In this document: piece by piece, positions 8,385-62,110 of the stretch
Layout: every line of letters starts with the position of its first letter
How positions within the stretch are numbered: the first letter of the stretch is position 1
Assembly (NCBI GenBank): GCA_963966185.1
Contig: CAWZYM010000020.1
Span: 311,001 to 375,000 of the forward strand
DNA length: 64,000 nt
Direction of reading: 5' to 3'
Source of the DNA: Rhabditoides inermis
Taxonomy: Eukaryota; Nematoda; Chromadorea; Rhabditida; Rhabditidae
Position numbers and translations under genes: made by a program
The notes under the pieces: model-generated
Told to the model about the DNA's origin: nothing
The model's input: the letters and a program-made list of their open reading frames with translations, nothing else
Databases searched by the model: none

Positions 8385-9473
8385 AGTTACTTGAGCGAGA
8401 CTAGGAGAGTGACGTAGGGTCGAGTGGGCACCAGCTCCCCTCCGTACACCTTCAGAGAACCACCTGAAAGATCATCTCTACATCTTCTCTCCCTCGCTCT
8501 CTCACCATGTCCAATGTTCTGCAGCTTCTGCTCCAGCTTCTTCTCCCTCCTCTTTTTCATCACCACCTCCGGATTAGAAATGGTGCGCGTGAACGTCGTA
8601 GGTGGCACCTGAGACAATCAAGCGAACAATCAATAATCAATCAATACAAAATCTAACCTGACGGTACAGCTCACTGCCCGCCCTGTCGAGCGGCTCCTCT
8701 CGTCCAGCGTTCACGGATACTGAGAATATGGTATAACGAGTGTATAATGCCTTGCGCATACCTATCTGGTGTTTCTTCTTCAGCTCCTTCTTCTTGTCGC
8801 GCTTCGAGTATCGCTTGCCGTTCCGCTCCATCTCACCCTCCTGCATGTCGTGCAGATGGAGCGCCTAGACCATCATTGAATTAGAATAAACAAACAAACA
8901 ACCGACCGCGATGTCGCCGTAGTTTGCCTTCTCCTTGCGCAGCAGGAAGCGTCCCTCCCGGTCGTCGCGGTGCCAGGTGAGCTGAACCAGCAGCGGCTTC
9001 TCCTCCTCCTCAAGACGACGCTCCTCCCCAGACTCGTGCACCTAATTTGCATAATCAAATCATAACAAACAATGGTAAACAAAAAAAGAAACCTCATAGA
9101 GGGAATAGTCCGGATCGGAGAGCATCTTGAGATCGGGTAGGAACTTCTCCACGAGGGCTTCGATCACGGCGCGAGTAGTGGCGGTGGAGGAGACGCGAAT
9201 GCACTTGGTTGACACCTGCATGCGTATTTCAACGTCAAACACGTGTACTCGCAAGCAACACAATCCCAGCAATGCCACCGCACCCACCTTCTCGCCGTCG
9301 TCTTGAAAATAGAAGCGCATCACGCCTTGAATCTCCAGGTCCTACAAGCACAATACATTAGTGAACATCGATTGATTCCTACCTCGGTGGGCTGAGAGAG
9401 GTGGAATAGGTCGAGTCGGTTCTCGTTCCATTGCTGCACCAGTGCGTGTAGCTGCTCCCGTTCGGTCAGCATT
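39..9473 (-). CDS. AFDN: Afadin / canoe homologue, multi-exon, 3' end beyond the left edge
   Basis: Adherens-junction scaffold linking nectins, Rap/Ras GTPases and F-actin. Read right to left I can place about 37 coding exons with GT-AG edges. Start exon 9383-9473 (MLTEREQL...) runs into RA1: 9288-9341, 9093-9215 (CIRVSSTATT) and 8907-9041. RA2: 8506-8608 (FTRTISNPEVVMKK), 8391-8463, 8252-8330, 7388-7458, 7215-7322 (LSDDECPL). FHA-like: 6725-6901, 6554-6652 (MDGVVTVTP), 6399-6491. DIL/cargo-binding: 5234-5378, 5036-5194, 4853-4989, 4689-4774, 4483-4628 (NAALTIQLASQL), 4102-4302 (GLELAAECHL), 3946-4062, 3736-3814. PDZ: 2743-2826 (GIGLSIVAAQ), 2248-2387 (VDGRLSAGDQLLSVNG), 2057-2162. The tail is Gln/Pro/Ser-rich, with an acidic coiled-coil exon at 391-497 (LSAEERMRYRQLLDL) matching the afadin C-terminal helix, and a last visible exon 39-234. 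Domain order is that of afadin and I saw no disabling lesion. A possible Gln-rich exon near 7092-7167 is uncertain. Confidence 0.93.
2399..2522 (+). repeat. Homopurine GAGGAGGAG/GGGA tract in an afadin intron
   Basis: About 120 nt of almost pure purine on the + strand (GAGGAGGAGAA units with G runs), in the intron just upstream of the second PDZ exon. On the transcribed sense it is a CCTCCT/TTCTCC polypyrimidine stretch. Such tracts can form triplexes; no function is shown here. Confidence 0.85.
2908..3080. mobile_element. MITE-like element, TIR GCGGTCAGTCTCTTCGAAAC (copy 1)
   Basis: Perfect 20-bp terminal inverted repeats: GCGGTCAGTCTCTTCGAAAC at 2915 and its complement ending at 3074, flanked by a weaker extension (TTAAAGGT / TACTTAA). 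The interior repeats a TCGAAGGGAGTTTCGAAGAG module near the right end. There is no coding capacity. It lies in an afadin intron between the exon at 3091-3296 and the PDZ exon. A second copy is at 28455-28570. Confidence 0.75.
8007..8383. repeat. (GA)n microsatellites in afadin introns
   Basis: Uninterrupted GA dinucleotide tracts at about 8007-8038 and 8349-8382 flank the exon at 8252-8330. Similar shorter tracts lie at 4647-4668, 6260-6303 and 7690-7720. All are intronic. Confidence 0.85.
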
Positions 9474-10477: not shown

Positions 10478-11197
10478 CTAAGCAGTCTTGGGCTTCTTGG
10501 CGGGCGGGTCGTCTCCCTGCTCCTCCTGCTCCTTCTCCTCATCCTCCACATGCCGCGCGTAGTGGAGCAGCGTGGCCGTGTTGGCCGCGTGCGCCAGTGC
10601 CGCTTCCTCGGTCACCTCGACGATCTTGTCGTCGTCGAACTTGTACCACGCCGCGCCCTCCTTCACGAGCGCCACGTAGTGTTCTGAAAGGACAGGGTGA
10701 AACTAGTGCGGTGCTCACTCTCACCACTCACTCTCACTCACCGCGGTGCGCGTGATAGCAGACTGCCCCGATCAGCTCGAAGGCGTCCTCGCCGGTGGTG
10801 GTCTGCAATATGCAAAATCATTTCTCTCTCTCTCTCTCTCGCCTTCGCTCTCGCTCTCTCGCTCTCTCGTTCTTTCGCTCTCTCGCTGTTCCCTACCCGC
10901 ATGTCAGTGACCAGTTTGTAGTGGCTGTTATCAAGGTGGAGATAAATGCCGCGCATCTCCTCCTGGTCCTGGGACTCTGCAGTGGTCACTGATCAGCTTC
11001 TGATCACCCTCGGCCAAAGTGACTTGGCTAGTTGTCACTCACGGAATGCGGAGGGGTAGAGCGGCTCTGAAACGTGCCACATGCCCGTCTCAGCTTTGTG
11101 CACGTGGATGGGCAGGCCAAGGTACGTCGCGCACGCAGTCACCTCGGCTTGCGTCGCGAACACCTCCACACCCCCGTTCGTCCTCACCATGTCCCTG

Positions 11198-11245
<48 letters not shown>

Positions 11246-14200
11246 TTCTCTCCAACCCACTTGAGGTGCTGCTCGAACTCCTCGAGTGTGCCTCCGTAGA
11301 TGCGCTTGTAGGTGGAGTAGCCCTCGTACATCTCCTGGCGGATCGCGTGGCGGATGTCGACGTGGGCACTCTCCGACCCGCAGAGGAGAGTCGATATGCA
11401 CCTGCAGTATTCACAATTGTATTTTGATTGTAAATTCTTGATTCTTAATTGGACATATGATTGATTGATATGACCATTTTCTCATTACTTATGGTCGTTC
11501 AGATTACTGGAAGCTGTGGAGATTTACTGACCGAAAGAAACACGAGCCGTCAGCGGCAACGTCCAGCAGATCGTCCTCGTGCGGGTTGAGCGTGCGCGGA
11601 AGAGCTCGCGGAGACAGGGTGTGCGCCACCCGCATACCCCTACAATGAGAGCTCGTGATAAGCGGAGAGGAGGAAGGAGATGGGTGAACACTCACTGGAA
11701 CTCCACGTCCAGGCGCTCGCACATCTTCTCACGCCACTCCTCGGATGGGGTGCCGAACGTGTAGTCCGTGTTTACTCGAGGCGGGCACGGTTCGAGTCCC
11801 GCCTCCTCCTCCAGTTTCTGCAGAAGCGTGGACAAGAGTTCCACCGGACACTGGAAGAGAGTAAAGATACGAGGACCGAGACACCCACGTGGTGGTGTCC
11901 GTCGCCGAAGGCCCGCGGCTCTCCCTCGACAGGATCTGTCGAGAGATACTCTGCCAGCACGTCCAGGTACGCCGTCACTTCCTCCGCAGCGAGCACACGC
12001 GAGCCGGTGAGCAGGTGGCGCAGAATACCGACAGTGTAACTGAAAGGCGTTGCATTGTGAGAAGCTACACTATTCATTCAAATCTGCGCACTCACAGCAG
12101 AAGACGAGAGGGCAGGGTATCCCTGCTGATGAGCCGTCCCAATCCAGCCGTCAGAGCGTCGTGCAGTCGGTTGTCGGCAGCCAGAAGCTGCAAGACGGCC
12201 GATGCGTAGCAGTTGTTACGCGTGTTCGCCAGCCTAAATGGACATTTTCCAGAGGGACAGAAAGAGGTAGCAATAGAAAGAAAAGGGGACACCCACTTTC
12301 GGTGGAGCAGATGCTGGGGAGGCACGATTGACTGGTCGCCCGTCTCGCCCTCTCCCTGAGAGGATGGGTTTTCGTATATCAACGGATGGAAGACGGGGGG
12401 GGGATGCGACCCACCTCATACACAACGTGTGCTCCCTCTGCCAGCAGCTGGTCCTCGATGTGACCCTCCGGTCGCACGATGGCGTCCTGCCGAGATATGC
12501 ACTGACTCTTCCGAAGAAGCACGCAGGTCGGAACATACTGTAAGTTGAACATCATCATCATAATCTATCCCGTTCCTTATCTCTCCCCTCCCCCCTCCCC
12601 CTCCCTATCTCTCCCCTCCCTCCCACCCTCCCCTCCCCCACCCCCTCCCTTTCACTACCTTGTTTACGGGTAAGCACTCCTGCGCTCCCGTCCTCTGAAC
12701 GGCGATGAGAATGTTGCTGCAATCAAATTCGTTAAGCCCCAATGCTCAGCGGCTGCACTCACGGAGGGAGGGTGGTGTGCTGCGTGATGGTGCAGCGTCC
12801 GGGGCACTTTGTGCAATACTGGTCGGCGGCCGGCCACTGAGCGTGCGAGAGCGCGCGTACTCTCTCCAGCACAGACGTTCTGCAACACACGCTCACATCC
12901 TCTCTTCCCTCTTTCTCGCGACTTCTCTTCCCCCCTTCTATCACCCCCTCTCTCACCCGGCAGTGCCGATATGGTGGATCCTCTGCACGACCGTGCCCTT
13001 CATCATCGTCGAGAGACGGCAGCCTCGCGTATGGCAGTGTGATCTGTAATTAGTTTTGAGATGCCTAGTTTGTATACGTTTAACGTAACGTATCATTTGC
13101 TATTACGTTGCATATGTATCACCTTAAAACGTAGTGTTTTGCTTGATTTTAGTATTAGAATTTTTGTAAATAGATCGATATAGTATTTGGTATTCTGTCA
13201 CGTATGAGTTGATTGTTGTGAACTGAGATGAGGCCGCTTTTACAGAAAAACAGAATACAGTACCGCCAGAGTACGTGTCGGTCACTCCTCTTATTTATTA
13301 TCTTGTTTTGCAGCTCGCCGCTGTCTATCCAGCCTCCAATCGTCTACACTCTTCCCGGATGATTGTTGGGTGGGTGAATTACATCCGCTGTATGCATTAA
13401 TTATTACACTTACACATTATCCTGTGCTATTGCTATAGTGTGTTCCCTTTTCTGACCGACAAATTTGGGTTGCCGGAATATTGGACCGGAATATCACACT
13501 TGCGCGTTAGCGCGGTTGCTTTTCCGCTATGCAATTGGATCTGAAGAAAATTTAAAATAAGGAGTTTTCCTTTTCTAGTGTATAAAACTTTCTGAATTTG
13601 AAATATGTCACGCAGCCACTTGTCATACACTACTACCGTAAAGCTCTTGTTTACATGAACTCAAATCAGTTTGGTTTTTCACCGCCGAAAAAGTGTACCT
13701 AAGTGTATGATATGAATATGAATTTTTCACAGTAGTTGTATCTTATGTGTGCCGACGTATCCACAGAGCCCGAGTTGTCGTTTTCGATTTTGTTGAGCCG
13801 CAATTTCAATTCATTTGGTTGTATGATTTTATGAAGTATCTCACAACTCAGAAACGAAAAAGAGATTAGAGGCTCAAATTTTCACAGAAACTAACTATTG
13901 ATTGCACACTAACTTTTCTCGTGGACTTGTTGTAGAGCTCTATATTATTTGAGCTTTTCAGTTCGGTACACTTTTTCGGAGGAGGAAAGATCTAGAGATA
14001 TGAAATTTTCACATTAGATGTTGCTCATGTAGATCAAAGGCCCCCACAGAGCCCGATTTTTGATTTAGTTGTTTGTTGAGCCGCAATGTCGATCAACACA
14101 ACTTCTTGATTTCACAAAGTAGCTCATAACACAATAACGAAAAGACATGTAGATCTCACATTTTTACAACATTTGACCCTACCATATTCGAAGAGATGTG

Positions 14201-14787
14201 TGAAAACTAGAACCGAACTGTCTAGAAACTGTCTATGTCGGTAAAAAGAACAAATACCGCCGCAAGTTTTGGAATCCTCCGTGAGAAACGCTGGGCCCGA
14301 GCAGAGTAGCCCAATTGGAAGTCAGCAACGCTAGTTCGAGGAATGGATTCCTATTTGGAGTGGATATCGTTCCCTGCCGTCAGTTTGATACTGGACTCGA
14401 AGCGCATTTGGATTATCGATGAATTATCGATCGATTATCAACATCTACGCCAATATTGATTCAATGGGATGGTCCGCAAGACGAATTCCCTCTATGGATG
14501 GGCAAGAGCCCGATTAGTGAACCTGCATCTTCCATTCGGCGCAAAAATCTATACTACAATCATAGACTCTTATGAGTGATTGCGTTTTGTACGTATCATA
14601 ATCATGTTTCCGATTCCGAATAAATTGATTTGAGTACGTATTTATATGTTAGCGTTGTTTGAAGTTTGATCATACATGTATGCAATTGCAATACTTGACA
14701 CACCGACCTGTTGGAGGTGGTGAATGAAAAGGGAGAGGCGGGGCCGGGCTGAATCGCGGTGACCGAAACAGACGGCGAAGACGACAT
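10478..14787 (-). CDS. Deubiquitinase with an OTU domain embedded in a rearranged USP domain
   Basis: Fifteen exons keep one frame across every GT-AG junction and encode about 571 residues: 14708-14787 (start), 12957-13043, 12763-12879, 12659-12716, 12415-12537, 12297-12355, 12096-12233, 11889-12039, 11696-11850, 11532-11639, 11261-11401, 11043-11194, 10897-10976, 10742-10802, 10478-10683 (stop). Visible motifs in protein order: a CxxC pair followed by TTLPPNILIAVQRTG (about 78-105), like the USP fingers and LPPxLxxxLKRF segment; ANTRNNCYASAVLQLL (about 177-192), like the USP Cys box, Cys183; an OTU domain from LDVAADGSCFFR (Cys356) through YGGTLEEFEQHL and TNGGVEVFATQAEV to LDNSHYKLV (His475); then REHYVALVKEGAAWYKFDDD (His505, Asp520-522), a typical USP His box. 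The C-terminus is basic (PAKKPKTA). Predicted activity is ubiquitin hydrolysis by cysteine chemistry. The first exon is the least certain: it is separated by a 1.66-kb intron but its phase fits. Mixed-pyrimidine tracts sit in introns at 11200-11250 and 10820-10890. Confidence 0.85.
13720..14165. repeat. Two diverged tandem copies of a ~230-bp non-coding repeat
   Basis: Copy one (about 13720-13920) and copy two (about 14000-14165) share the order GAAATTTTCACA, CCACAGAGCCCGA, TTGTTGAGCCGCAAT, then CAACACAAC-type and AACGAAAA-type strings. They lie in the proposed first intron of the OTU/USP gene, which is otherwise AT-rich and without exons. Confidence 0.6.
14280..14570 (+). repeat. Dispersed repeat related to 53,725-54,030
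   Basis: GTGAGAAACGCTG, GATTATCGAT, GTCCGCAAG, GCAAGAGCCCGATT and CTTATGAGTGATT occur in the same order here and at 53,725-54,030; a part reappears inverted near 51,900-51,990. No protein is encoded. It is probably a non-autonomous element. Confidence 0.65.
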
Positions 14788-16740: not shown

Positions 16741-18124
16741 GCTACTACACTCTCTTGGAACGAGTTCCAAGCAATGCCGTACCACCGCATCTTGATAATC
16801 ATGTTCAACGAGTTGACTGCACCCGATCCGGCACTCGAGCCGATTGCCTGGAACATTCTCGAGGCGTTCGGACAAGCGCTCTTCATCCTCCAGCCGAGAC
16901 GCGTGCCCGGATTCACCTATGCCTGGCTCGATATTGTCGGACACAGGTATGTCGATGGAGAGTGGGAGTAGGGGATATGTGATGTGTGATGTTTCAGGTT
17001 GCTTGATTGATTGATTGATGTTTCAGGCATGTATCGCTCGTATGCTCGGTGAGAACTGTGACGGCCTGCGGACAGGAGCCATGTACACACAGCTGATCAT
17101 CTGCCACCTCAAGTTCCTCGCGCCTTTCCTCCGCAACATCCAGCTGCCCAAGACTGTGGCTGTGCTGTACAAGGGCACTCTGCGAGTGTTGTTAGTGATC
17201 CTGCACGACTTCCCGGAGCGTGCCCTCATTACTCCTCTGGTGCTGTCTGCGTACCCCCGCAACATGCGCTTACCCGACCCGTTCGCCCTCAACTTCAAGC
17301 AGATCGATGCGATTGCCGAGATGGGCGAGGAGCCCAAGAACCACATCTCGATGACCACCATCATCCCGCCCGAGCTGCGCGCCCAGCTGGACGTGTACCT
17401 CACCAGCCGCTCGCCCGTCGAGTTCCTCTCCACTCTGCCCTCGCTACTCCAGGTATGCTCTCTTGATCCGTGCCCTCATTACTCCTTGGATTCCAGGTGT
17501 CGCAAACTCCCGGCAGCAAGTACAACACGACTGTGATGAACGCGGTGGTGCTGTACGTGGGCATCCGCGCGATTGGAAACCTGCACGAGAGGGGACAGCG
17601 CATCTCGATGACCACCATTGCCCACAACGAATTCATGGACATCTTCCAGAACCTCGCTGTTCAGTTGTGCCCCAAGGGTGAGTGGCGGGTGAGAAAACTA
17701 GGGAAGGGATGGGTTGTATGTCTGTAATTGCGTTTTCCAGGCCGCTTGCTGTTGTTCAACGCGGTAGCCAACCAGCTGCGGTACCCGACCGCGCACACTC
17801 ACTACTTCAGCTGCGCGTTCCTTTTCCTTTTCTTCCATTCTGACTTGCCCGCCATCCAGGTATGTAGACGAGAGAGAGAGAGAGAGAGAGGAAGGACGAG
17901 GCTGACTCGTTGTTTGCAGGAGCAGATCACGCTAGAACGTGGCCAACAGCGTCTCCCGAGATAGAGCGTCTCTTCCAGAACGTGGCCAACACGTGCGTCT
18001 CGAACACGACCGCCACTCAGGTAGGGAAAGAGAGGGGAGGAGGGGAGAGCAGGAGTGAGTGATGGGATTGCAGCGTGCGGGCGCGGCGTTGGCTGCGGCT
18101 GCTGGTGGTTCGGAGGCCAAGTGA
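16741..18124 (+). pseudogene. CNOT1: CNOT1 copy A: 3' end (NOT1 C-terminal domain), damaged
   Basis: CNOT1 is the scaffold of the CCR4-NOT deadenylase; its C-terminal NOT1 domain docks CNOT2/CNOT3. Exons: ~16741-16946 (NEFQAMPYHRI ... PGFTYAWLDIVGHR), 17027-17452 (CIARMLGENCDG ... LYKGTLRVLLVILHDFPE ... LSAYPRNMRLPDPF), 17497-17677 (VMNAVVLYVG ... MDIFQNLAV), 17741-17859 ([18 protein letters not shown]), 17920-18020, 18074-18124 (stop TGA). Lesions: the first junction is one nucleotide out of frame; about 20 residues after HDFPE are replaced by RALITPL; after EQIT about 45 residues are missing and a stop (TAG, ~17960) follows, while [14 protein letters not shown] continues in another frame. 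Upstream CNOT1 exons are not adjacent. It could be a divergent 3' end of a real gene with assembly damage, but I favour a pseudogene. Confidence 0.8.
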
Positions 18125-30929: not shown

Positions 30930-33560
30930 TTCATTATTTCAGTATACGGGAAGTGGGTGCGAGTGAAAAGGAATATGAATGCGTCGCGGCCATCGAGATA
31001 CGCTGTCCCCTCTCGTGCAGGTATCCAATCGCGCGGATGTCCACGTACAGCACCACTGCGTTCATCACGTCGTGCTGATCTTGCTGCCGAAAGTCTGCGG
31101 CACCTGCAAACCAAACAGTGGTGATGGCATGCATCGAGAGAGGAGTATACCTTGAGTAGCGAGGACAGAGTGGAGAGGAACTCAAGAGTGGTGGCGTTGG
31201 CCTTGGATCCGCTGAAGTCGGAGAGGTGCTCGTCGGCAGAAAAGGGCTTGAATCCGCATATGCGAGCAGCGAACTCCTCGTAGACGGCCATCTGCTGTGC
31301 AGTGGTGGTGGTGGTGGCTCCAGCGCAGCTTCTCGGGAAGAGAGGCCTGCTCGGCGGCCGCCGCCTCATTCGTCCACTCCCTGGCCCTGCCCGCTGCCCT
31401 AGCGCCTAGCACCTAGCATACAGGCCGTCATAGTCATAGCACGCATCATCTGGTGACACGTCCGCCTCAATACGCACAATTAGTACCCGACGAACATGTA
31501 TTGGTTTTCTCACCTCATCTTCTGCTCGTCTGCCTCCAGCTGGAAGTCCTTCTTCACCACCTGCTCAGTAACAGTCATCGCCACCTTCAGAGAGCGCTGA
31601 GTCACAGGCTCTGAAACACAATTTGATAATTGATAAACAAAAAACAATATTAGTTCAAGGAGATGATCTCTTCCACTCACCGATGAGTTCCCTGATGGTC
31701 ATGTTGATGACCTGTTTGACAATCGTCTTGAGCTGTGGGTGCATCTGGAAGAGCGGTAGAGTGGGCAGAATCTTGAGATGCGGCAGCAGGCCGGCGAGCG
31801 AGACGACGTTGATGTCATGGTAGGAGAAGTGTGCGGGCATCTGCTGGAGCTGCTGCTCGGGCGCGTTCGGATCGGCATCGGGCGCCGGTGTGCTGCGCTT
31901 CGTATCACTGCCCGGCATCAGACCAGAATGAAATCTATAACGTGCCGTTATTCATTGTGATCACATTGCAATCGCCCTCTCGTTTTCGCCAAACAATAAC
32001 CACCCAACACAACATACCGCAAAGGCACACAGTGAATAGAGAACAACTGACCGCATGCTGCTGGGAACGGGACTGCTACCAAATCCATCCGGCTGCAGGC
32101 TGCTTCAGATTCATCAGATCCGACAGCTGCTGCTTGAGCCGCACCAGTCGCTCCGTGTCCTTGAGAACTCTCTCGATAGACAGAGAGTGCAGATCAACAA
32201 ACAACTCCTAACACAACATCTGAACAACATGATTTGCTTTCTGTTCAATCCTACTAGTTTCCACATCGATCTCGAACTTGAGGTTGACCTTCAGATTCGA
32301 CTCGATGTGGAGCTCTGCCAACACCTTCAAAGATTGGCCGCACCCAGGCACAAGTTGCCGTAAAGATCTAAAAAAAAACACGATAAAATGATTGACGAGA
32401 AGAAACGATAACAACTTAACAGTGTCTTTGCGCATGCGAGTATCTTCTTGGCAATGAACGGCACAACAAAGAGCCTTCGATCCGTTTTAGCAAGGCTCCA
32501 GCAGGAGAGATTTGAGATCCAGATCCTGCAACGATGTAACGGCCAAAGATGTAAGTGAACCGATGAACAGTTCAAACAGAACTTACAGAGACAACGATGG
32601 GCTTTCCATGGGCAATAGTAATCTGTCCGAGCCAGAGACCAAGGTTCTTGAGAAGCTGCCTGTCCGAGCACAGAGTTGCCCTGCAAAGTGCTCTCCAGTT
32701 ATTCGTAATTCTTCAAACGCATGGTACACACCGTCCTGCTGTTGGGGAGGGGGACGGCGATCGTGTCCCTTCCGTGTATCGCAGGCAGCTGCTGCATGTT
32801 GCAAGCAGACTTGACGTACTGCGCCAAGTTCCATGGGAACTGGCCAACGTTCGGATTCTGCGAGATCTGGCACATCTAAAACACAACACAATCATTACGA
32901 AAAACACGCGCATCGCTGATGTTGTAACCAAGGTCGTTACGAGTTACGAAACACACAGACATGTGGGAGTGGGATCTTGAGATTGTGAAATCGCACAATG
33001 TATTTGAATGCTTCACACCTTGGAATAGAGGCACAGTTTGAGACACGCGTTCAGAGCGACAATTCCGAACTTCCAGAGCATGCTTCCCACTTGAGACGGC
33101 AGATGCTCGATCACCTTGCGAACATCGATGGCGAATTGCAGATTTCTAAAAAATGAACCGGTATAACATTGAAATGAATATGTGTTACATGACCAATTTA
33201 ATTCTATCACACAATGATCTCCTCACGGATGATGCCTCCGTACACCACCCCGGCCGTGGTGGTTAGCTCCAGCTCGGGGTACTCGTTGAAGAATTTGTAC
33301 TTCTCGAACAAGAATTTGTACTTCTGCAACAACACAAGGTTAATCATGATTAACAATGTACTATTGCAGAAGTAGTAACAAAACAATTACCTGGTCGAAT
33401 CCTCTAAACATGGAAGATTGTCGATGTTGTTGCGATTGCTTTCAGGATCTTTTCGATGCGGTCTCCGAAGTAAGACCTAAAAAGAGAAGATGGATAAAGA
33501 GAGAGTCAAACAATAAATACTTACGAAATAAACGCCAAAAAGATCTCATTTGCTGCTGCC
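30930..33560 (-). pseudogene. CNOT1: CNOT1 copy C: HEAT/MIF4G/DUF3819 segment fused to the 3' region
   Basis: Right to left: KYKFLFEKYKFFNEYPE (~33,310), LQFAIDVRKVIEHLPS (~33,130), MCQISQNPNVGQFPWNLAQY (~32,870), LLKNLGLWLGQITIAHGK (~32,660), DLDLKSLLLEPC-stop (~32,510), FVVPFIAKK (~32,450), NLKVNLKFEID (~32,290), [18 protein letters not shown] (~31,810), TQRSLKVAMTV (~31,600), MAVYEEFAARICGFKP (~31,270). The frame then jumps from SGSKANATTL to EFLSTLSSLLK, joining the NOT1 start to a much later exon (VMNAVVLYV, one nucleotide deleted). Other lesions: TAA after LLLEPC, a 5-bp deletion just after it compared with copy E, TAG in the MLC exon, and loss of about 250 nt after MMRAMTMTA. About 150 residues of MIF4G are absent in every copy. 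Confidence 0.85.
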
Positions 33561-33693
33561 GGTTGTTTGAATAAAAACGAACGGCCGGCCGGCAGCGCGC
33601 GATGCGGCTTGCAAACCACGCCTACTTTTCGCTGATTGTGCATATTTTCAACGCGAGACAGCTGTCTACCACCCAAAGTACTACGCTGTAGGC

Positions 33694-33695
<2 letters not shown>

Positions 33696-33733
<38 letters not shown>

Positions 33734-35082: not shown

Positions 35083-38000
35083 CACAGTACCCTGAACAGT
35101 TGGACAGGCTGGTCGTCGGGCACTCCCTCTGGCTATCCGTTTTGCGCGTCCTTGCTGCCCGCCTGCTGCAGGAATCTCACAGGCGTGTCTGTCGTCGGCG
35201 TCGGCCGCGCTCCCATCTGCATCTGCTGGATCTTGCGCAGCTCCTCGATCACGCGAGGGAAGTTGCGGCGCAGAACCTCGTGCGACGCCAGCGGGTGATC
35301 CGACGTACTCATAGCCTAAACACATGGCATCACCATCCCTCCCATCTCCTCATTCTCTCCTTCTCCCACCTTTATGAGCCTCTGGGCGAAGATGCTGGCC
35401 TGTAGGTTGCCTCCGTCGTCCATGAGCTGGGCGAGGAACGCGTCGTACTCGGCGGACAGCAGCAGCTGGTGCTTGTACAGGAACTCCATCGCGTCCACGT
35501 TGTTGCGGCTGTCCATGCGGTTGCTCAGAATGATGGCAGTCACCTTCCTCTGTAGCTCGTGCAGGGGCATGAGCGCCTGCAGGATGCGGCAGAAGCCCAC
35601 GAACAGCTCTCCGGCGCGCAGCACCCAGTCAGAGCTCTGTCGGGTGGCAGGGTCCACTTGGTAGGCGAACAGCAGCTGCTCCACCGCGCGCAGCACCGCG
35701 TTGTACAGCTGCACGGGGTCGCGAGGGGCGGCAGCCAGCTGCGAGAGCGAGTCGCGCATCGCAACCACCGCCTGGTAGCCCTTGTTCGTCGGCTGAGGGT
35801 CGCGCGCCGACAGCATAGTCGTCACCTCACGCACCTGCAACAACAAAATGCGCATCAATCAATCATTCACTCACAACATGTTCCACTCACCACAATGCCA
35901 ATCTGCGCCACAAACACCTCGAGCTCCTTGTCCGAGAGAGTGGTGGCGTTGGCCTTGGATCCGCTGAAGTCGGAGAGGTGCTCGTCGGCAGAAAAGGGCT
36001 TGAATCCGCATATGCGAGCAGCGAACTCCTCGTAGACGGCCATCTGCTGTGCAGTGGTGGTGGTGGTGGCTCCAGCGCAGCTTCTCGGGAAGAGAGGCCT
36101 GCTCGGCGGCCGCCGCCTCATTCGTCCACTCCCTGGCCCTGCCCGCTGCCCTAGCGCCTAGCACCTAGCATACAGGCCGTCATAGTCATAGCACGCATCA
36201 TCTGGTGACACGTCCGCCTCAATACGCACAATTAGTACCCGACGAACATGTATTGGTTTTCTCACCTCATCTTCTGCTCGTCTGCCTCCAGCTGGAAGTC
36301 CTTCTTCACCACCTGCTCAGTAACAGTCATCGCCACCTTCAGAGAGCGCTGAGTCACAGGCTCTGAAACACAATTTGATAATTGATAAACAAAAAACAAT
36401 ATTAGTTCAAGGAGATGATCTCTTCCACTCACCGATGAGTTCCCTGATGGTCATGTTGATGACCTGTTTGACAATCGTCTTGAGCTGTGGGTGCATCTGG
36501 AAGAGCGGTAGAGTGGGCAGAATCTTGAGATGCGGCAGCAGGCCGGCGAGCGAGACGACGTTGATGTCATGGTAGGAGAAGTGTGCGGGCATCTGCTGGA
36601 GCTGCTGCTCGGGCGCGTTCGGATCGGCATCGGGCGCCGGTGTGCTGCGCTTCGTATCACTGCCCGGCATCAGACCAGAATGAAATCTATAACGTGCCGT
36701 TATTCATTGTGATCACATTGCAATCGCCCTCTCGTTTTCGCCAAACAATAACCACCCAACACAACATACCGCAAAGGCACACAGTGAATAGAGAACAACT
36801 GACCGCATGCTGCTGGGAACGGGACTGCTACCAAATCCATCCGGCTGCAGGCTGCTTCAGATTCATCAGATCCGACAGCTGCTGCTTGAGCCGCACAGGT
36901 CGCTCCGTGTCCTTGAGAACTCTCTCGATAGACAGAGAGTGCAGATCAACAGACAACTCCTAACACAACATCTGAACAACATGATTTGCTTTCTGTTCAA
37001 TCCTACTAGTTTCCACATCGATCTCGAACTTGAGGTTGACCTTCAGATTCGACTCGATGTGGAGCTCTGCCAACACCTTCAAAGATTGGCCGCACCCAGG
37101 CACAAGTTGCCGTAAAGATCTAAAAAAAAACACGATAAAATGATTGACGAGAAGAAACGATAACAACTTAACAGTGTCTTTGCGCATGCGAGTATCTTCT
37201 TGGCAATGAACGGCACAACAAAGAGCCTTCGATCCGTTTTAGCAAGGCTCCACCAGGAGAGATTTGAGATCCAGATCCTGCTACGATGTAACGGCCAAAG
37301 ATGTAAGTGAACCGATGAACAGTTCAAACAGAACTTACAGAGACAACGATGGGCTTTCCATGGGCAATAGTAATCTGTCCGAGCCAGAGACCAAGGTTCT
37401 TGAGAAGCTGCCTGTCCGAGCACAGAGTTGCCCTGCAAAGTGCTCTCCAGTTATTCGTAATTCTTCAAACGCATGGTACACACCGTCCTGCTGTTGGGGA
37501 GGGGGACGGCGATCGTGTCCCTTCCGTGTATCGCAGGCAGCTGCTGCATGTTGCAAGCAGACTTGACGTACTGCGCCAAGTTCCATGGGAACTGGCCAAC
37601 GTTCGGATTCTGCGAGATCTGGCACATCTAAAACACAACACAATCATTACGAAAAACACGCGCATCGCTGATGTTGTAACCAAGGTCGTTACGAGTTACG
37701 AAACACACAGACATGTGGGAGTGGGATCTTGAGATTGTGAAATCGCACAATGTATTTGAATGCTTCACACCTTGGAATAGAGGCACAGTTTGAGACACGC
37801 GTTCAGAGCGACAATTCCGAACTTCCAGAGCATGCTTCCCACTTGAGACGGCAGATGCTCGATCACCTTGCGAACATCGATGGCGAATTGCAGATTTCTA
37901 AAAAATGAACCGGTATAACATTGAAATGAATATGTGTTACATGACAAATTTAATTCTATCACACAATGATCTCCTCACGGATGATGCCTCCGTACACCAC

Positions 38001-38300
38001 CCCGGCCGTGGTGGTTAGCTCCAGCTCGGGGTACTCGTTGAAGAATTTGTACTTCTCGAACAAGAATTTGTACTTCTGCAACAACACAAGGTTAATCATG
38101 ATTAACAATGTACTATTGCAGAAGTAGTAACAAAACAATTACCTGGTCGAATCCTCTAAACATGGAAGATTGTCGATGTTGTTGCGATTGCTTTCAGGAT
38201 CTTTTCGATGCGGTCTCCGAAGTAAGACCTAAAAAGAGAAGATGGATAAAGAGAGAGTCAAACAATAAATACTTACGAAATAAACGCCAAAAAGATCTCA
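35083..38300 (-). pseudogene. CNOT1: CNOT1 copy D: most contiguous middle region, incl. the start of the NOT1 domain
   Basis: Shares block C through MAVYEEFAARICGFKP (~36,020), then continues correctly: KANATTLSDKELEVFVAQIG (to 35,889), REVTTMLSARDPQPTNKGYQ ... GELFVGFCRILQALMPLHEL ... SIFAQRLIK (35,370-35,836) and MSTSDHPLASHEVLRRNFPR ... LQQAGSKDAK (about 35,140-35,316). These match the human CNOT1 order from DUF3819 into the NOT1 domain. It has the same TAA after LLVEPC, the TAG in the MLC exon and the deletion after MMRAMTMTA as copy C, so it cannot make a full protein as written. The exons at 35,140-35,836 are intact and may be the youngest functional remnant. Confidence 0.85.
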
Positions 38301-38447
38301 TTTGCTGCTGCCGGTTGTTTCGTTTGAATAAAAACGAACGGCCGGCCGGCAGCGCGCGATGCGGCTTGCAAACCACGCCTACTTTTCGCTGATTGTGCAT
38401 ATTTTCAACGCGAGACAGCTGTCTACCACCCAAAGTACTACGCTGTA

Positions 38448-38450
<3 letters not shown>

Positions 38451-38485
<35 letters not shown>
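38451..38485. repeat. (TA)n at the second duplication breakpoint
   Basis: About 17 TA units at the right end of CNOT1 block D. To the right, sequence switches to unique DNA and then a LINE. Confidence 0.9.
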
Positions 38486-38639: not shown

Positions 38640-41203
38640 AGGAGGCGCGGACGGCCCCCGCCTCGTGCATGTCGTCGAACAAGAGCGTAATGGAGAAAAT
38701 GAATGGAAATGGAGATGGGCCGGGAACAAGTGCGAATTGTGCAGTGTGTATGGGTCACTTAGGGGAGAATGTGATTGCATGTGCATCATGTGAGTGTGAA
38801 CTGCAATCACTCAACTCTTCCCGATCTCGATGGACTCTTCTTTGACAGTCCGCTCACTCGCCCTAAGGGGAAACGATATGTGCTGGAGAGTGTCGTAGTA
38901 GAGACGGGAGAGGGTGAGCCCCATTGTGTACGCATGATATCACTGAATATCAACGGATTGAGAGGAAAGATAGATGATGAACTGTTTCGGAAAGACCGGA
39001 CAGCGGGAGGAGAGGGAGTGGCACTGTATGTGAACAGTGCGTTGCGCCCCTCGCTGGTGAAGGAAGAGACTTCTTTGGAATTAGTGGCGGTGAAATGCAG
39101 GGGAGAGAAAAAAGTCAATTCGTGGTGGCCTCGGTCTACCGTAGCCCGACTAGAGCGCTGAACACTCGATGAAACAAGTCGTTTCACACGTGAATCGAAA
39201 TCGATTGATTGATATTATGATGGTGAGCAGGTGAGTGAGGATAGCTGGAGTAAAGCACTTCGCTCCTGTCAAGAAAGAACATGAACCCATTATGGTTGAC
39301 ACATGCATTTGATGCGAGAATCGAAAGGAGAAGCCAGTAAAGGGCTACGATTTCAAGAAGGCAAACTGGACGGGTCTGATAGAGTTTCTTGGAAAAGAAG
39401 TGCGATGTGAGTGGATAGAGGATAGGAGTCTGTCGATTGATGACATTTGGAGAAAGTTTGTGGATGTGGTTAAAGCGGGTATGCAGAAGTGGATACCGCT
39501 CAAAACATTCCGCAGGAGAAGAGGGTGCGAGTGGATGAGCGAGAATGTCAAGACTTTGCAGCGGCGGAAAGACGCACTGCACAAGTTGAGCAAGGAAAGG
39601 GGAGACAGCGAGGCAAAAGCTGCGTTTAGACATGCTCGAAAAGAGCTGGCTAAAGAGACAGCCAACGAGAAGAAGAATTTTTTTGATAAGAAGTTTGCCT
39701 CTGTTGAGAGTCCCACAGATTTTTGGAAGACGAATGAGTGTCTGACAGGGAAAACGAAGGGCAAGGGAATCCCCGATCTGATTGACTCGAATGGGAAGAT
39801 GGCTGTGTCAGATCAGCAGAAGGCAGACATGCTCATGGAGCAGTTTGTCAAGGTTGGAAACACAATGGAAAGTGAGATTATCTTTCAAAAGTACTTCCAA
39901 GTAAAAGTAGTTGGTTTGTACTGTTGTCTCAGTTGAGCAAAAGGACTGACATGTTTTCAATGGAGACATGTGCCAACAGGCTCTCTCTCTCATACCAGTG
40001 CAAAGCGGCCATAATATAATGAACGCGTTTACGAAGTTATGCAGTTATTATCTAAAAGCACAACTTCTGTTGTAACATAACACGTCGAATAATGCTGAGA
40101 GCCTGTTTGCACATGTCTCCATTGAAAACATGTCAGTCCTTTTGCTCAACTGAGACAACAGTACAAACCAACTACTTTTACTTGGAAGTACTTTTGAAAG
40201 ATAATATCTGTCCTTTTCTTAAGTTTTGTTTCACAAAATTACATTTCCATACACGTTCGCGATTCGCTGCGAGGATACCGACGCGCACCGCCCGCTATTC
40301 TCCTCTCTCTCACTCACACACAGAGGGGGCGGAGCGAAAGCGATTGTCCGACGACCGCCCGCCCGCCCGCCCGAGCGACCGACACCAATCTCAATCCGCA
40401 CTCGAATGCGGACTCTTCGTATCTCGCTTCAAATTCAATCAAACTCAATACAACTTTCTATAACTCTATCGAATAGAGATGTGAATGCAATGTAACAGTG
40501 GAAATCACTTCAAAATGAGGAAAAGTGCTTCATCCGGGAAAAGTCGTTATTGAGCATTCTAGCGCGCGAGGACATCCAGTACAAACGAGAGGGCGCTGGC
40601 GCGCCCTCTCTAATGCCGGAGATTGGATCGGATGCGGAGAGAATCCTTCCCTGCTCGAGAGAGTTTGTGGAGAAGTACATACGAGAGGCATCCGAGCAGA
40701 AGGCGAGTGGAATAGATGGAATAACTGTGCGGTTGTTGAAGAGGTGTGTGAAACCATTGACTGCGCCAATCGTGGCTATGATCAATCGGTGTCTACACGA
40801 GGAGAAGTTCCCTCGGGAATGGAAGGAAGCGGTGATATCACCCATTCAGAAAGTGGAACACCCACAGCACCCAGTCGATTTCCGACCGGTGTCACTGCTA
40901 CCTATTGTGAGCAAGATGGCAGAAGAGTACGTGTTTGGAATGATGGTTGGAGAGGTTGACGGGAAGCTGTCTCCGAATCAGTTCGGATTCCGGAAGGGAA
41001 GGAGCACCGTGGACGCGGTACTGAGTTTCCAGTATGGAATTAGTGAATGCCTGCAGAGTTGTAAGAGGAAGGCTGCTCGGGCGGTTGCAGTGTTTTTCGA
41101 TATTTCGAAAGCATTCGATACGATCCCTCTTGGACATTTGGTAAATGTTCTAAGACATGAATTCAATCTTGCAGATTCGTACCTCACAAGGAGTGTCGTT
41201 TAG
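38640..41203 (+). mobile_element. Non-LTR retrotransposon with zinc-finger, endonuclease and RT remnants
   Basis: 38,668-38,800 carries a CAVCMGHLGENVIACASC zinc-finger like the PHD-type fingers of some LINE ORFs. 38,930-39,160 has ISLNINGLRGKID and GGEGVALYVNS, parts of an APE-type endonuclease with internal deletions. 39,345-39,890 is the linker before RT. After an inserted palindromic element, 40,550-41,203 has RT motifs DFRPVSLLPIVSK, NQFGFRKGRSTVDAV and AVFFDISKAFDTI; the YADD motif and 3' end are missing. CR1/Jockey-like by motif, inactive. Confidence 0.88.
39880..40225. mobile_element. Palindromic MITE inserted in the LINE
   Basis: The left arm (AAAAGTACTTCCAAGTAAAAGTAG ... GAGACATGTGCCAACAGGCTCTC) and right arm (GAGAGCCTGTTTGCACATGTCTCC ... 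CTACTTTTACTTGGAAGTAC) are near-perfect inverted repeats of about 105 bp around a ~110-bp centre. A related single arm is at 42,190-42,290. Confidence 0.8.
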
Positions 41204-55199: not shown

Positions 55200-58100
55200 G
55201 GGTGTTGGTAAAAGCCGGACCGGACCGGACCCGGACCGGACCGGACCGCATGGTAAAAGCCGGACCGGACCGAAATCACCGGACCGGCAATAATTTCGCT
55301 TTTTCACCTCAAACATTGTTCTTAAACATTATTATTACATTCTTTTCACTCATTCTACTCCACACAACAGTTCTTTATCAAGTTTAATCCTTGTCCGGTG
55401 AATCTCACTGTTTCCGGACGAGCCGGACCGATTTGAATCGAGCCGGACCGAGCCGGACAGAGCCGGATCGGCAGATTTTATCACTAATAGGTGATGAATG
55501 GTAGAATTCCAAGTCCCCTTGACTATATCACAACATTGTAACAGCCAACACGCTTCATAATTACTCTATATGCGACACATATACATATCTCTCCGTCCGG
55601 TGATTTCATGTCTACCGGACCGAGGCGAACTGAGCCGGACCGAGCCGGACCGGCTGATCTTATCACTAATAGGTGATAAATGATGTGTTTTCGAGTTCCC
55701 TGAACTAGAATATAACATTTTAATAGTCGATACGTTTCAGATTGTATGCATAGATCATATGTTCCTCTCCGTCCGGTGATTTCATGTCTACCGGACCGAG
55801 GCGAACTGAGCCGGACCGAGCCGGACCGGCTGATCTTATCACTAATAGGTGATAAATGATGCGCTTTCGATTTCCCTGAACCAGAATATAGCATTTCAAT
55901 AGTCGATACGTTTCAGATTGTATGCATAGATGACACATATCACATATCTCTCCGTCCGGTGATTTCATGTCTACCGGACCGAGGCGAACTGTGCCGACCG
56001 AGCCGGACCGGCTGATCTTATCACTAATATGTGATAAATGATGCGCTTTCGAGTTCCCTGAACTAGAATATAACATTTTAATAGTCGATACGTTTCAGAT
56101 TGTATGCATAGATCATATGTTTCTCTCCGTCCGGTGATTTAACATCTACCGGACCGAGGCGAACTGAGCCGGACCGAGCCGGACCGGCTGATCTTATTAC
56201 TAATATGTGATAAATGATGCGCTTTCGAGTTCCCTGAACTAGAATATAACATTTTAATAGTCGATACGTTTCAGATTGTATGCATAGATGACACATATCT
56301 CTCCGTCCGGTGATTTCATGTCTACCGGACCGAGGCGAACTGTGCCGACCGAGCCGGACCGGCTGATCTTATCACTAATATGTGATAAATGATGCGCTTT
56401 CGAGTTCCCTGAACTAGAATATAACATTTTAATAGTCGATACGTTTCAGATTGTATGCATAGATCATATGTTTCTCTCCGTCCGGTGATTTCATGTCTAC
56501 CGGACCGAGGCGAACTGAGCCGGACCGAGCCGGACCGGCTGATCTTATCACTAATATGTGATAAATGATGCGCTTTCGAGTTCCCTGAAACAGAATATAA
56601 CATTTCAATAGTCGATACGTTTCAGGTGCTGGACCGGCTGATCGCGGCAGGATTTCGAGAATCCATATTTGAATGTTATTCCAAGGCGCATGCGGGTACG
56701 TTTTCATACACGCTTCAATTCCGATGGTGTGAAGGGAAAATACAACAACAAATGTGTTACTTCAGCTGGGTGATGGCGGCTCAGATGTGACCCTGATTGG
56801 AGTGACGGTGCACAGCAGCAGCGGACGCGGACACATCACCATGGTTATCCCTACCGGCTGCTCATTTCTCCACTACAATGGACTTCTGCGAGTTCCACAT
56901 CGCGTCCTCCCCCGTGGGGACACAGACGCGCTTCCAACGGAAACTATCACCACATTGTATTATGCCGCCACATCGTTTCTTGTTTAGTGTACCGGCTTAC
57001 TCGCACGTGCCTTTTCAAAGAATATATTTCACATCTGTGCCTTTATGAAATTGTATAGTTCTGTACATTACATTGACTTTTTTAAGATTACTTTTCATTT
57101 CAACTTTCTGCACAATCTTCTTATGTTGTTGTTCTTACATGTACATCGTTCGTTAATATCTTACAACTTGTCATTGTGACATATATGAGATTGTTTTTAT
57201 TGTTCTATCCAAATCTTGAGGATATTTTCCATAAATATTTTATCAATGATATAATAATAATAGGTCCTGCTCGAAAAAAAATGTAGTCTAGTGAACTTTA
57301 TAACCTATTAGTGAAACGTATCGACTATTGAAATGCTATATTCTGGTTCAGGGAAATCGAAAGCGCATCATTTATCACCTATTAGTGATAAGATCAGCCG
57401 GTCCGGCTCGGTCCGGCTCAGTTCGCCTCGGTCCGGTAGACATGAAATCACCGGACGGAGAGGAACATATGATCTATGCATACAATCTGAAACGTATCGA
57501 CTATTAAAATGTTATATTCTAGTTCAGGGAACTCGAAAACACATCATTTATCACCTATTAGTGATAAGATCAGCCGGTCCGGCTCGGTCCGGCTCAGTTC
57601 GCCTCGGTCCGGTAGACATGAAATCACCGGACGGAGAGATATGTATATGTGTCGCATATAGAGTAATTATGAAGCGTGTGGGCTGTTACAATGTTGTAAT
57701 CTAGTCAAGGGGACTTGGAATTCTACCATTCATCACCTATCAGTGATAAAATCTTCCGGTTCGGCTCTATCCAGGTCGGTCCGGCTCGGTCCGGTGAGTA
57801 TGAAATCACCGGACGGAGAGATATGTGTCATCTATGCATACAATCTGAAACGTATCGACTATTAAAATGTTATATTCTAGTTCAGGGAACTCGAAAGCGC
57901 ATCATTTATCACATATTAGTAATAAGATCAGCCGGTCCGGCTCGGTCCGGCACAGTTCGCCTCGGTCCGGTAGACATGAAATCACCGGACGGAGAGATAT
58001 GTGTCGCATATAGAGTAATTATGAAGCGTGTTGGCTGTTACAATGTTGTGATATAGTCAAGTGGACTTGGAATTCTACCATTCATCACCTATCAGTGATA

Positions 58101-58379
58101 AAATCTGCCGATCCGGCTCTGTCCGGCTCGGTCCGGTTCTATTCAAATTGGTCCGGCTCGTCCGGAAACAATGGGATTCACCAGGCAAGGATGAAACTTG
58201 ATAAAGGAACGTTGTATGGAGTAGAATGAGTAGAAACAATGCAATAATAACGTTTTAATACAATGACAGAAGTGAAAATGTGAAATTAATGCCGGTCCGG
58301 TGATTTCGGTCCGGTCCGGCTTTTACCATGCGGTCCGGTCCGGTCCGGGTCCGGTCCGGTCCGGCTTTTACCAACACCC
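55200..58379. mobile_element. Foldback-type DNA transposon, 3,180 bp, inside a CNOT1 exon
   Basis: The ends are GGGTGTTGGTAAAAGCCGG and its exact complement, followed inward by repeated CGGACCGGAC. The left arm (to ~56,625) has six units of about 177 bp, each with CTCCGTCCGGTGATTTCATG, GGACCGAGCCGGACCGGCTG and a TAGTCGATACGTTTCAG end. The right arm (from ~57,310) has four such units in inverse orientation. A single-copy loop of about 680 bp separates the arms. Long arms of internal repeats and a 9-bp target duplication fit Foldback/Mutator-like elements. I see no transposase, so it is probably non-autonomous. Confidence 0.9.
56627..57000 (+). other. Single-copy loop sequence with exon-like open frames
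   Basis: 56,630-56,697 reads VLDRLIAAGFRESIFECYSK and ends at a GTACGT donor. After TTACTTCAG a second open stretch reads LGDGGSDVTLIGVTVHSSS ... to a stop near 56,984. The two are not in one frame if the obvious splice is used. I recognise no domain. It may be a captured host gene fragment or a remnant of the element's own gene. Confidence 0.4.
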
Positions 58380-61300: not shown

Positions 61301-62110
61301 ACTCTCTCGGACAAGGAGCTCGAGGTGTTTGTGGCGCAGATTGGCATTGTGGTGAGTGGAACATGTTGTGAGTGAATGATTGATTGATGCGCATTTTGTT
61401 GTTGCAGGTGCGTGAGGTGACGACTATGCTGTCGGCGCGCGACCCTCAGCCGACGAACAAGGGCTACCAGGCGGTGGTTGCGATGCGCGACTCGCTCTCG
61501 CAGCTGGCTGCCGCCCCTCGCGACCCCGTGCAGCTGTACAACGCGGTGCTGCGCGCGGTGGAGCAGCTGCTGTTCGCCTACCAAGTGGACCCTGCCACCC
61601 GACAGAGCTCTGACTGGGTGCTGCGCGCCGGATAGCTGTTCGTGGGCTTCTGCCGCATCCTGCAGGCGCTCATGCCCCTGCACGAGCTACAGAGGAAGGT
61701 GACTGCCATCATTCTGAGCAACCGCATGGACAGCCGCAACAACGTGGACGCGATGGAGTTCCTGTACAAGCACCAGCTGCTGCTGTCCGCCGAGTACGAC
61801 GCGTTCCTCGCCCAGCTCATGGACGACGGAGGCAACCTACAGGCCAGCATCTTCGCCCAGAGGCTCATAAAGGTGGGAGAAGGAGAGAATGAGGAGATGG
61901 GAGAGATGGTGATGCCATGTGTTTAGGCTATGAGTACGTCGGATCACCCGCTGGCGTCGCACGAGGTTCTGCGCCGCAACTTCCCTCGCGTGATCGAGGA
62001 GCTGCGCAAGATCCAGCAGATGCAGATGGGAGCGCGGCCGACGCCGACGACGGACACGCCTGTGGGATTCCTGCAGCAGGCGGGCAGCAAGGACGCGAAG
62101 ATTGTTGTTG

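What the first reader, a model, noticed from the sequence alone, without database searches (positions are those of the whole stretch)
10478..14787. Two deubiquitinase folds in one: OTU domain nested between the Cys and His boxes of a USP
Fifteen exons with fully consistent phases encode about 571 residues. The OTU triad region (DGSC at 353-356, NSHYKLV with His475) lies between NNCYASAVLQLL (Cys183) and REHYVALV (His505) plus WYKFDDD, which are USP signatures. I know of no described family with an OTU inserted within a USP catalytic domain. If both sites are active this would be a dual-specificity enzyme; if one is dead, the insert may replace the USP fingers as a ubiquitin-binding module.
Basis: partly seen in the sequence, partly recalled or inferred. 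Interest (0 to 1): 0.88.

Follow-up and report, generated by a model that had tools for sequence, protein, structure and literature searches.

The report
Deubiquitinase nested inside another deubiquitinase
A gene in this eukaryotic genome encodes one ubiquitin-removing enzyme domain set into the middle of another, and related genes elsewhere in the same genome show that the arrangement is an old, maintained gene family rather than a misreading of the sequence.

Summary
On the minus strand, 14 exons from 13043 to 10478 (plus a doubtful one at 14787-14708) encode a protein with a UCH/USP match at 175-545 (E 9.4e-12) and an OTU match inside it at 352-465 (E 3.5e-6). Relatives in the same genome support it. 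A paralogue on contig C90 has the same nested order, 32% identity and mostly the same introns. C28, C100 and C244 also run USP Cys box, OTU, USP His box on one strand; C69 is a 5'-truncated copy. [quoted passage not shown] The window gene and C90 are stranger: exons resembling box 4 precede the Cys box, giving the order 4-1-2-OTU-5-6, on shared intron positions and a UCH score gain after reordering. Both catalytic triads are intact in sequence. I propose a two-site deubiquitinase; transcripts, fold and activity are untested. My literature searches listed no OTU-in-USP protein.

The parts
14708..14787 (-).
   Evidence: GT-AG and phase fit, but 1.66 kb away and not needed in the C90 model
12957..13043 (-). 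E2, possible start exon (Met40/41)
   Evidence: the C90 model starts at a Met in the matching exon, with the same phase-2 donor
12763..12879 (-). E3, displaced USP box 3/4 piece: CTKC motif to TTLPP
12659..12716 (-). E4, displaced USP box 4 strand (NILIAVQR ... VNK)
   Evidence: ends at a phase-0 intron like box 4 in C28; not recovered by the C90-trained predictor
12415..12537 (-). E5, end of box-4-like piece and linker
12297..12355 (-). E6, linker to the Cys box
12096..12233 (-). E7, USP Cys box: Asn178 (oxyanion position) and Cys183
   Evidence: aligned with USP14 NTCYMN
11889..12039 (-). E8, USP region between Cys box and box 2
11696..11850 (-). E9, USP box 2 (CPVELLSTLLQKLEEE), then PSEEWR lead-in to the OTU
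   Evidence: same phase-0 intron as QQ|DSHEFL in C28
11532..11639 (-). E10, OTU Cys loop DGSC (Asp353, Cys356)
11261..11401 (-). E11, OTU
11043..11194 (-). E12, OTU
10897..10976 (-). E13, OTU His strand (NSHYKLV, His475)
10742..10802 (-). E14, USP box 5 (FELIGAVCYH)
10478..10683 (-). E15, USP box 6: His505, Asp520/Asp521, acidic tail and KKPK end

Best explanation
The gene encodes a composite deubiquitinase: an OTU-class protease domain inserted within a USP-class catalytic domain, one member of a family of such enzymes in this genome. In the longer members (C28, C100) the OTU, after a long charged linker, sits at the box 4/5 insertion point of an otherwise ordinary USP. In the compact members (window, C90) box-4-like exons lie in front of the Cys box, so the USP palm and fingers must be completed by an N-terminal segment folding back while the OTU occupies the gap. 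Most likely both sites are catalytic, and the OTU, placed next to the USP's ubiquitin-binding face, engages the proximal ubiquitin or a neighbouring linkage of a chain whose distal ubiquitin sits in the USP site; this would couple linkage-selective chain trimming to general deubiquitination. Shown here: gene structure, nesting, recurrence, intact triads, purifying selection on both parts in the C28/C100 pair. Inferred: the fold of the permuted USP, both activities, the division of labour.
For: Exons and phases. Nested UCH and OTU matches in the window gene, C90 (UCH E 6e-8 over 122-495, OTU 20.7 bits at 295-387), C28 and C100 drafts (UCH E 3.6e-19 and 1.7e-23 spanning OTU E 3.1e-12 and 4.4e-12); C244 has the UCH front part and OTU, with OTU His (GNHYDMV) and USP GHYRAV...FDDAVV downstream, read by eye. 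C90: 160 of 501 aligned residues identical; 9 of the window gene's 13 introns (E2-E15) at the same column and phase, 3 more with the same phase within 1-12 columns. Against C28, 7 introns outside box 4 fall, by eye, at matching places with the same phase, including CFF|R, QHL|K and the one just before the USP His. OTU Asp, Cys and His, USP His and the fourth-position Asp are invariant in 4 of 4 aligned members. dN/dS between C28 and C100 is 0.19 over 8 USP blocks and 0.28 over 6 OTU blocks. Displaced box 4: with the N-terminal piece put in canonical place UCH scores 53.9 bits for the window gene (4 shuffles 47.1-49.8) and 48.3 for C90 (4 shuffles 30.8-33.6); three introns coincide with box 4 of C28: A|GTS and L|GQS (phase 2), KCA|TC of C90 and KCS|KC of C28 (phase 2), VNK|Y and IDQ|V (phase 0). 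Precedent for inserts acting on chains: USP37 UIMs act on the proximal ubiquitin (PMC6412040, title and abstract start in the listing); USP11 UBL2 steers towards K48 chains (PMC12718135, passages).
Against: No transcript, structural or enzymatic evidence. The N-terminal piece alone matches nothing in Pfam or PDB; a profile comparison with C28/C100 box 4 aligned only 7 columns and 3 of 300 column shuffles did as well; the second USP profile, UCH_1, did not gain from the reordering (17.4 bits real, 18.4 in one of 4 shuffles); and the cross-trained predictor missed the box 4 strand exon in both genes. No box 3 was found in the window gene, and its Cys box is atypical (TRNNCY). C90 has Ser at the third catalytic position, though USP16, USP30 and USP45 have Ser and are active (PMC10867860, passages). 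C90's OTU score is under Pfam's cut-off (20.7 against 23.3). The genome-wide UCH and OTU scans, which work exon by exon, listed neither the window gene nor C90. C90 was spliced by eye with the window gene as guide, and the C28/C100/C244 models use a predictor trained on both, so agreement is not fully independent. C28 has further introns in the OTU that the window gene lacks, C90 has two more and one at a different place. The dN/dS blocks were picked for being alignable.
Confidence: 0.6

Rival explanations
1. The architecture is real but only one site works: the OTU is the catalyst and the permuted USP halves survive as a ubiquitin-binding cradle, or the reverse.
For: No box 3 found and box 4 displaced in the compact members; the window gene's Cys box is atypical and C90 has Ser at the third position.
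Against: USP Cys, the Asn five before it, His and the fourth-position Asp, and OTU Asp/Cys/His, are kept in both compact members at 32% identity; Ser at the third position occurs in active human USPs.
Confidence: 0.3
2. Two adjacent or overlapping genes, or a false exon chain, were joined by the reader.
For: No transcripts available; all models are predictions.
Against: The same order on one strand at C90, C28, C100 and C244, shared intron positions and phases across the USP/OTU borders, introns of 38-130 bases within E2-E15.
Confidence: 0.04
3. The window gene is a rearranged pseudogene of the longer form.
For: C69 is 5'-truncated; the neighbourhood holds many duplications; the window gene has a shortened, reordered USP.
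Against: The window gene's spliced frame is open throughout, and C90 shares the reordered layout at 32% identity, which unconstrained copies would not keep.
Confidence: 0.06

Closest known systems
USP (peptidase C19, Pfam PF00443) with insertions at the box 4/5 point, such as USP25/USP28
   Same: Cys box, box 2, box 5, His box and third/fourth residues; in C28/C100 also boxes 3-4; an insert at the box 4/5 point, called a common insertion point in PMC6509359 (passages). Nearest PDB sequences: USP12/USP14/USP46 for the window/C90 USP parts, USP30, USP12 and USP46 for C28
   Different: the insert holds a protease domain; in the window gene and C90 a box-4-like piece precedes box 1
USP37 (UIMs inserted in the catalytic domain)
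   Same: ubiquitin-engaging module inside the USP domain (listing); C28/C100 look USP37-like to me from recalled sequence, which was not computed
   Different: UIMs are binding motifs; here a whole OTU domain with an intact triad
USP4/USP11/USP15 (UBL plus disordered stretch splitting the catalytic domain into D1 and D2)
   Same: catalytic domain split by a long insert, as in C28/C100
   Different: the inserted UBL is described as non-catalytic; box order is normal (recalled)
OTUD-type OTU proteases (OTUD5, OTUD1, OTUD3; Pfam PF02338)
   Same: closest PDB sequences to the OTU part (E 0.001, 0.0086, 0.065); D-G-x-C loop and HY strand
   Different: not known to me inside another protease

Membership tests
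USP (PF00443) | profile score above Pfam's cut-off (23.9) | tested here: met
   45.5 bits; C90 33.0; C28 69.8 and C100 84.0; C244 31.1
USP (PF00443) | Cys box with catalytic Cys and Asn five residues before it | tested here: met
   Asn178/Cys183, and Asn/Cys in C90; role of the Asn as in USP7 N218/C223
USP (PF00443) | His box and following third/fourth residues | tested here: met
   His505, Asp520, Asp521; Ser-Asp in C90
USP (PF00443) | boxes in the order 1-2-3-4-5-6 | tested here: not met
   window gene and C90: 4-1-2-OTU-5-6; met, apart from the insert, in C28 and C100
USP (PF00443) | zinc fingers with two CxxC pairs (recalled) | tested here: inconclusive
   one CxxC (CTKC) at the N-terminus; no second pair seen in the window gene
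USP (PF00443) | ubiquitin hydrolysis | not testable with these tools
   needs enzyme assay
OTU (PF02338) | profile score above Pfam's cut-off (23.3) | tested here: met
   28.0 bits; C28 47.5, C100 47.0; C244 24.7; C90 20.7, below
OTU (PF02338) | D-G-x-C loop and HY (or HF) strand with catalytic His | tested here: met
   Asp353, Cys356, His475, invariant in 4 of 4 aligned members
OTU (PF02338) | OTU fold and ubiquitin hydrolysis | not testable with these tools
   spliced proteins were not handed to structure prediction; needs assay

The most novel reading that the evidence does not exclude
A protease domain of one family inserted in the catalytic domain of another, both active, with the host USP domain assembled from exons in a permuted order: a two-headed, linkage-sorting deubiquitinase and a natural test of how far a USP fold can be rearranged.
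Probability: 0.4. Interest if true: 0.85.

Novelty: new variant of a known kind. Interest (0 to 1): 0.7.

Why it matters
USPs are known to take insertions, but the inserts in the papers I saw are binding, steering or oligomerising modules. A protease inside a protease would put two ubiquitin specificities in fixed geometry, a natural version of what engineers build as fusions. The compact members also pose a sharp folding question: can a USP work when box 4 is supplied from the N-terminus? Six other copies in one genome, from long to compact to truncated, offer a series for following how the permutation arose.

Tried and rejected
Protein database (5.8 billion sequences): the window protein gave 1 hit at E<=10 of 7999 scored, a helicase-OTU protein at E 0.1; the two-member alignment none at E<=1 of 7997; the C100 draft none at E<=0.1 of 7990. 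Viral contigs: 274 and 240 pattern matches, none confirmed; prokaryotic genome contigs: 219, none confirmed. I could not search a collection of eukaryotic genomes, so absence says little about other organisms.

OTU loci C122 and C43 were set aside: by eye and from recalled sequences OTUD6-like and OTUD7-like, no USP boxes seen in the part read. Weak own-genome matches of the C90 protein (C45, C260, C331, C26) were compared again and not pursued. I first took NNNYTLC for a lost OTU His in C244; GNHYDMV lies further down, so that was dropped. Profile comparison of the N-terminal piece with C28/C100 box 4 was weak and was followed by the reordering test, with 4 shuffles per gene. Collecting more box 4 sequences by pattern gave one.

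Literature: ('otu and usp domains', 'usp and otu domains', 'usp-otu', 'otu-usp', 'otu-uch fusion') found 0 papers. Searches listed 2 of 2, 12 of 101, 10 of 14, 7 of 7, 10 of 25, 12 of 19 and 4 of 4 papers; none of the titles and abstract starts shown concerns an OTU inside a USP. I saw passages of PMC6238601, PMC6509359, PMC10867860, PMC5976635 and PMC12718135, and only the listing of PMC6412040. The library lacks most subscription papers and all bioRxiv preprints.

Full report
What is there. I rebuilt them: introns GT-AG, phases consistent, 571 residues, stop ending at 10478. Pfam scores UCH (USP) at 45.5 bits over residues 175-545 and OTU at 28.0 bits over 352-465, both over their cut-offs. 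With the OTU cut out, the USP part scores 47.2 bits, and the OTU piece alone 30.4 bits. In PDB the window protein aligns weakly with USP14 (E 0.0026) at the Cys and His boxes.

Is it one gene? A search of the same genome (172.6 Mb, 599 contigs) with the protein found the window locus and a second place on contig C90. The C90 locus can be spliced into 16 exons and 535 residues with the same layout. The two proteins share 160 of 501 aligned residues. Of the window gene's 13 introns between E2 and E15, 9 are at the same column and phase in C90, 3 have the same phase within 1-12 columns, and 1 differs; C90 has two more. C90 passes Pfam's UCH cut-off on its own (33.0 bits over 122-495); its OTU score (20.7) is just short. 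A predictor trained on C90 alone, given start and end, recovers 12 of 14 window exons exactly; trained on the window alone it recovers 9 of 16 C90 exons exactly and 25 of 32 boundaries. In both directions the exon with the box 4 strand is among those missed.

The wider family. Scanning the genome with the OTU profile gave 8 places in seven loci; the scan works exon by exon and listed neither the window gene nor C90, as the UCH scan did not either, so the family may have further members. I fetched the seven loci. C28 and C100 encode a longer form: Cys box (NTVNSCYMNAALQLL in C28), box 2 (QQDSHEFLQQL), box 3 (GCKQHVNTIKDEQ), box 4 (ELEGYKCSKC ... YLILTTLR), a long charged linker, the OTU, and boxes 5-6 (YKLRSVLSHLGGAR ... 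HYRSHV ... WLLCDDST). Pfam gives the edited drafts UCH 69.8 and 84.0 bits spanning OTU 47.5 and 47.0 bits. C244 has two inverted copies (97% over 5.4 kb and 95% over the next 1.8 kb); the one read in full has Cys box, OTU and, further down, GHYRAV...FDDAVV. C69 lacks the 5' part but keeps the OTU end followed by boxes 5-6. C122 and C43 look like separate OTU genes. So the family loci found that hold both ends (C20, C90, C28, C100, C244, and its copy by alignment) show the nested order.

Two layouts. In C28 and C100 the OTU stands between boxes 4 and 5, described as a common insertion point in PMC6509359 (passages). In the window gene and C90 nothing resembling boxes 3-4 was seen between box 2 and the OTU; instead the N-terminal exons read like box 4: a CxxC motif, TTLP, a strand ending in QR, then VNK-YVP or VDE-VIP. 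Alone this piece matches nothing in Pfam or PDB, and a direct profile comparison with C28/C100 was weak (3 of 300 column shuffles did as well). Put into canonical place it raises the UCH score from 47.2 to 53.9 bits in the window gene (4 shuffles: 47.1-49.8) and from 29.4 to 48.3 in C90 (4 shuffles: 30.8-33.6); the UCH_1 profile does not gain. Three introns match box 4 of C28 in place and phase: before G-x-S or GQS (phase 2), inside the CxxC of C90 (phase 2), and after the strand (phase 0). The simplest history is a long-form gene whose box 4 exons came to lie in front of the Cys box, perhaps through a tandem copy and deletion; this is inference.

Selection and active sites. Between C28 and C100, dN/dS is 0.19 over 8 USP blocks and 0.28 over 6 OTU blocks chosen as alignable, so both parts seem to be under constraint. 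In the alignment of four members OTU Asp, Cys and His, and USP His and the fourth-position Asp are invariant. C90 has Ser where the third USP residue sits; PMC10867860 (passages) reports that this residue may be Asp, Asn or Ser, that USP16, USP30 and USP45 with Ser are active, and that USP1, USP15, USP40 and USP48, but not USP7, rely on the fourth residue.

How it may work. Inserts in other USPs shape chain handling: the third UIM of USP37 recognises the proximal ubiquitin (PMC6412040, abstract start in the listing), and UBL2 of USP11 directs it to K48 chains (PMC12718135, passages). By analogy the OTU next to the USP face would hold or cut the neighbouring ubiquitin of a chain. With both triads present I favour two active sites (0.6 for the whole statement); one-site versions remain open at about 0.3.

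Novelty. No paper on an OTU inside a USP appeared among those listed (several lists were capped), and no relative in the protein, viral or prokaryotic collections. How widely the family is spread among eukaryotes is unknown. I call it a new variant of a known kind: the parts are USP and OTU, the way they are put together is new to me.

Noticed in passing
window 11195-11260: The 66-base intron between E11 and E12 is largely a GA repeat, a multiple of three and free of stops, so its retention would add 22 residues inside the OTU without breaking the frame. The matching intron of C90 also holds a GA repeat.
   Followed up: partly
window 16774-16950 and 35316-35858: Pieces of a CCR4-NOT subunit 1 (CNOT1) gene: PDB match E 1.1e-12 for the first, Pfam Cnot1 ARM repeat E 3.2e-17 for the second; the second is copied at about 61384-61926 (99.2%).
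   Followed up: partly
window 31185-33720, 35937-38477, 58380-62097: Duplications: a direct 2.5 kb repeat at 99.6% and inverted copies at 93-99% near 58-62 kb.
   Followed up: no
window 55439-58129: A cluster of repeats in both orientations, with offsets of about 180 bases.
   Followed up: no
window 40496-41203: Reverse transcriptase frame (RVT_1, E 5.5e-12).
   Followed up: no
window 9000-9360, minus strand: Exons of a gene with a Ras-association domain (PF00788, E 6.6e-8 for two exons joined by eye).
   Followed up: no
L055 and L056 (contig C244): Two inverted, 95-97% identical copies of a nested USP/OTU gene about 220 kb apart on one contig; real duplication or assembly artefact not decided.
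   Followed up: partly
L041 (contig C260) 1504-1746: A stretch resembling the OTU-end to USP-end part of the C90 protein (E 6e-5 in a 2.9 kb search, one stop inside); possibly a decayed relative, possibly chance.
   Followed up: no
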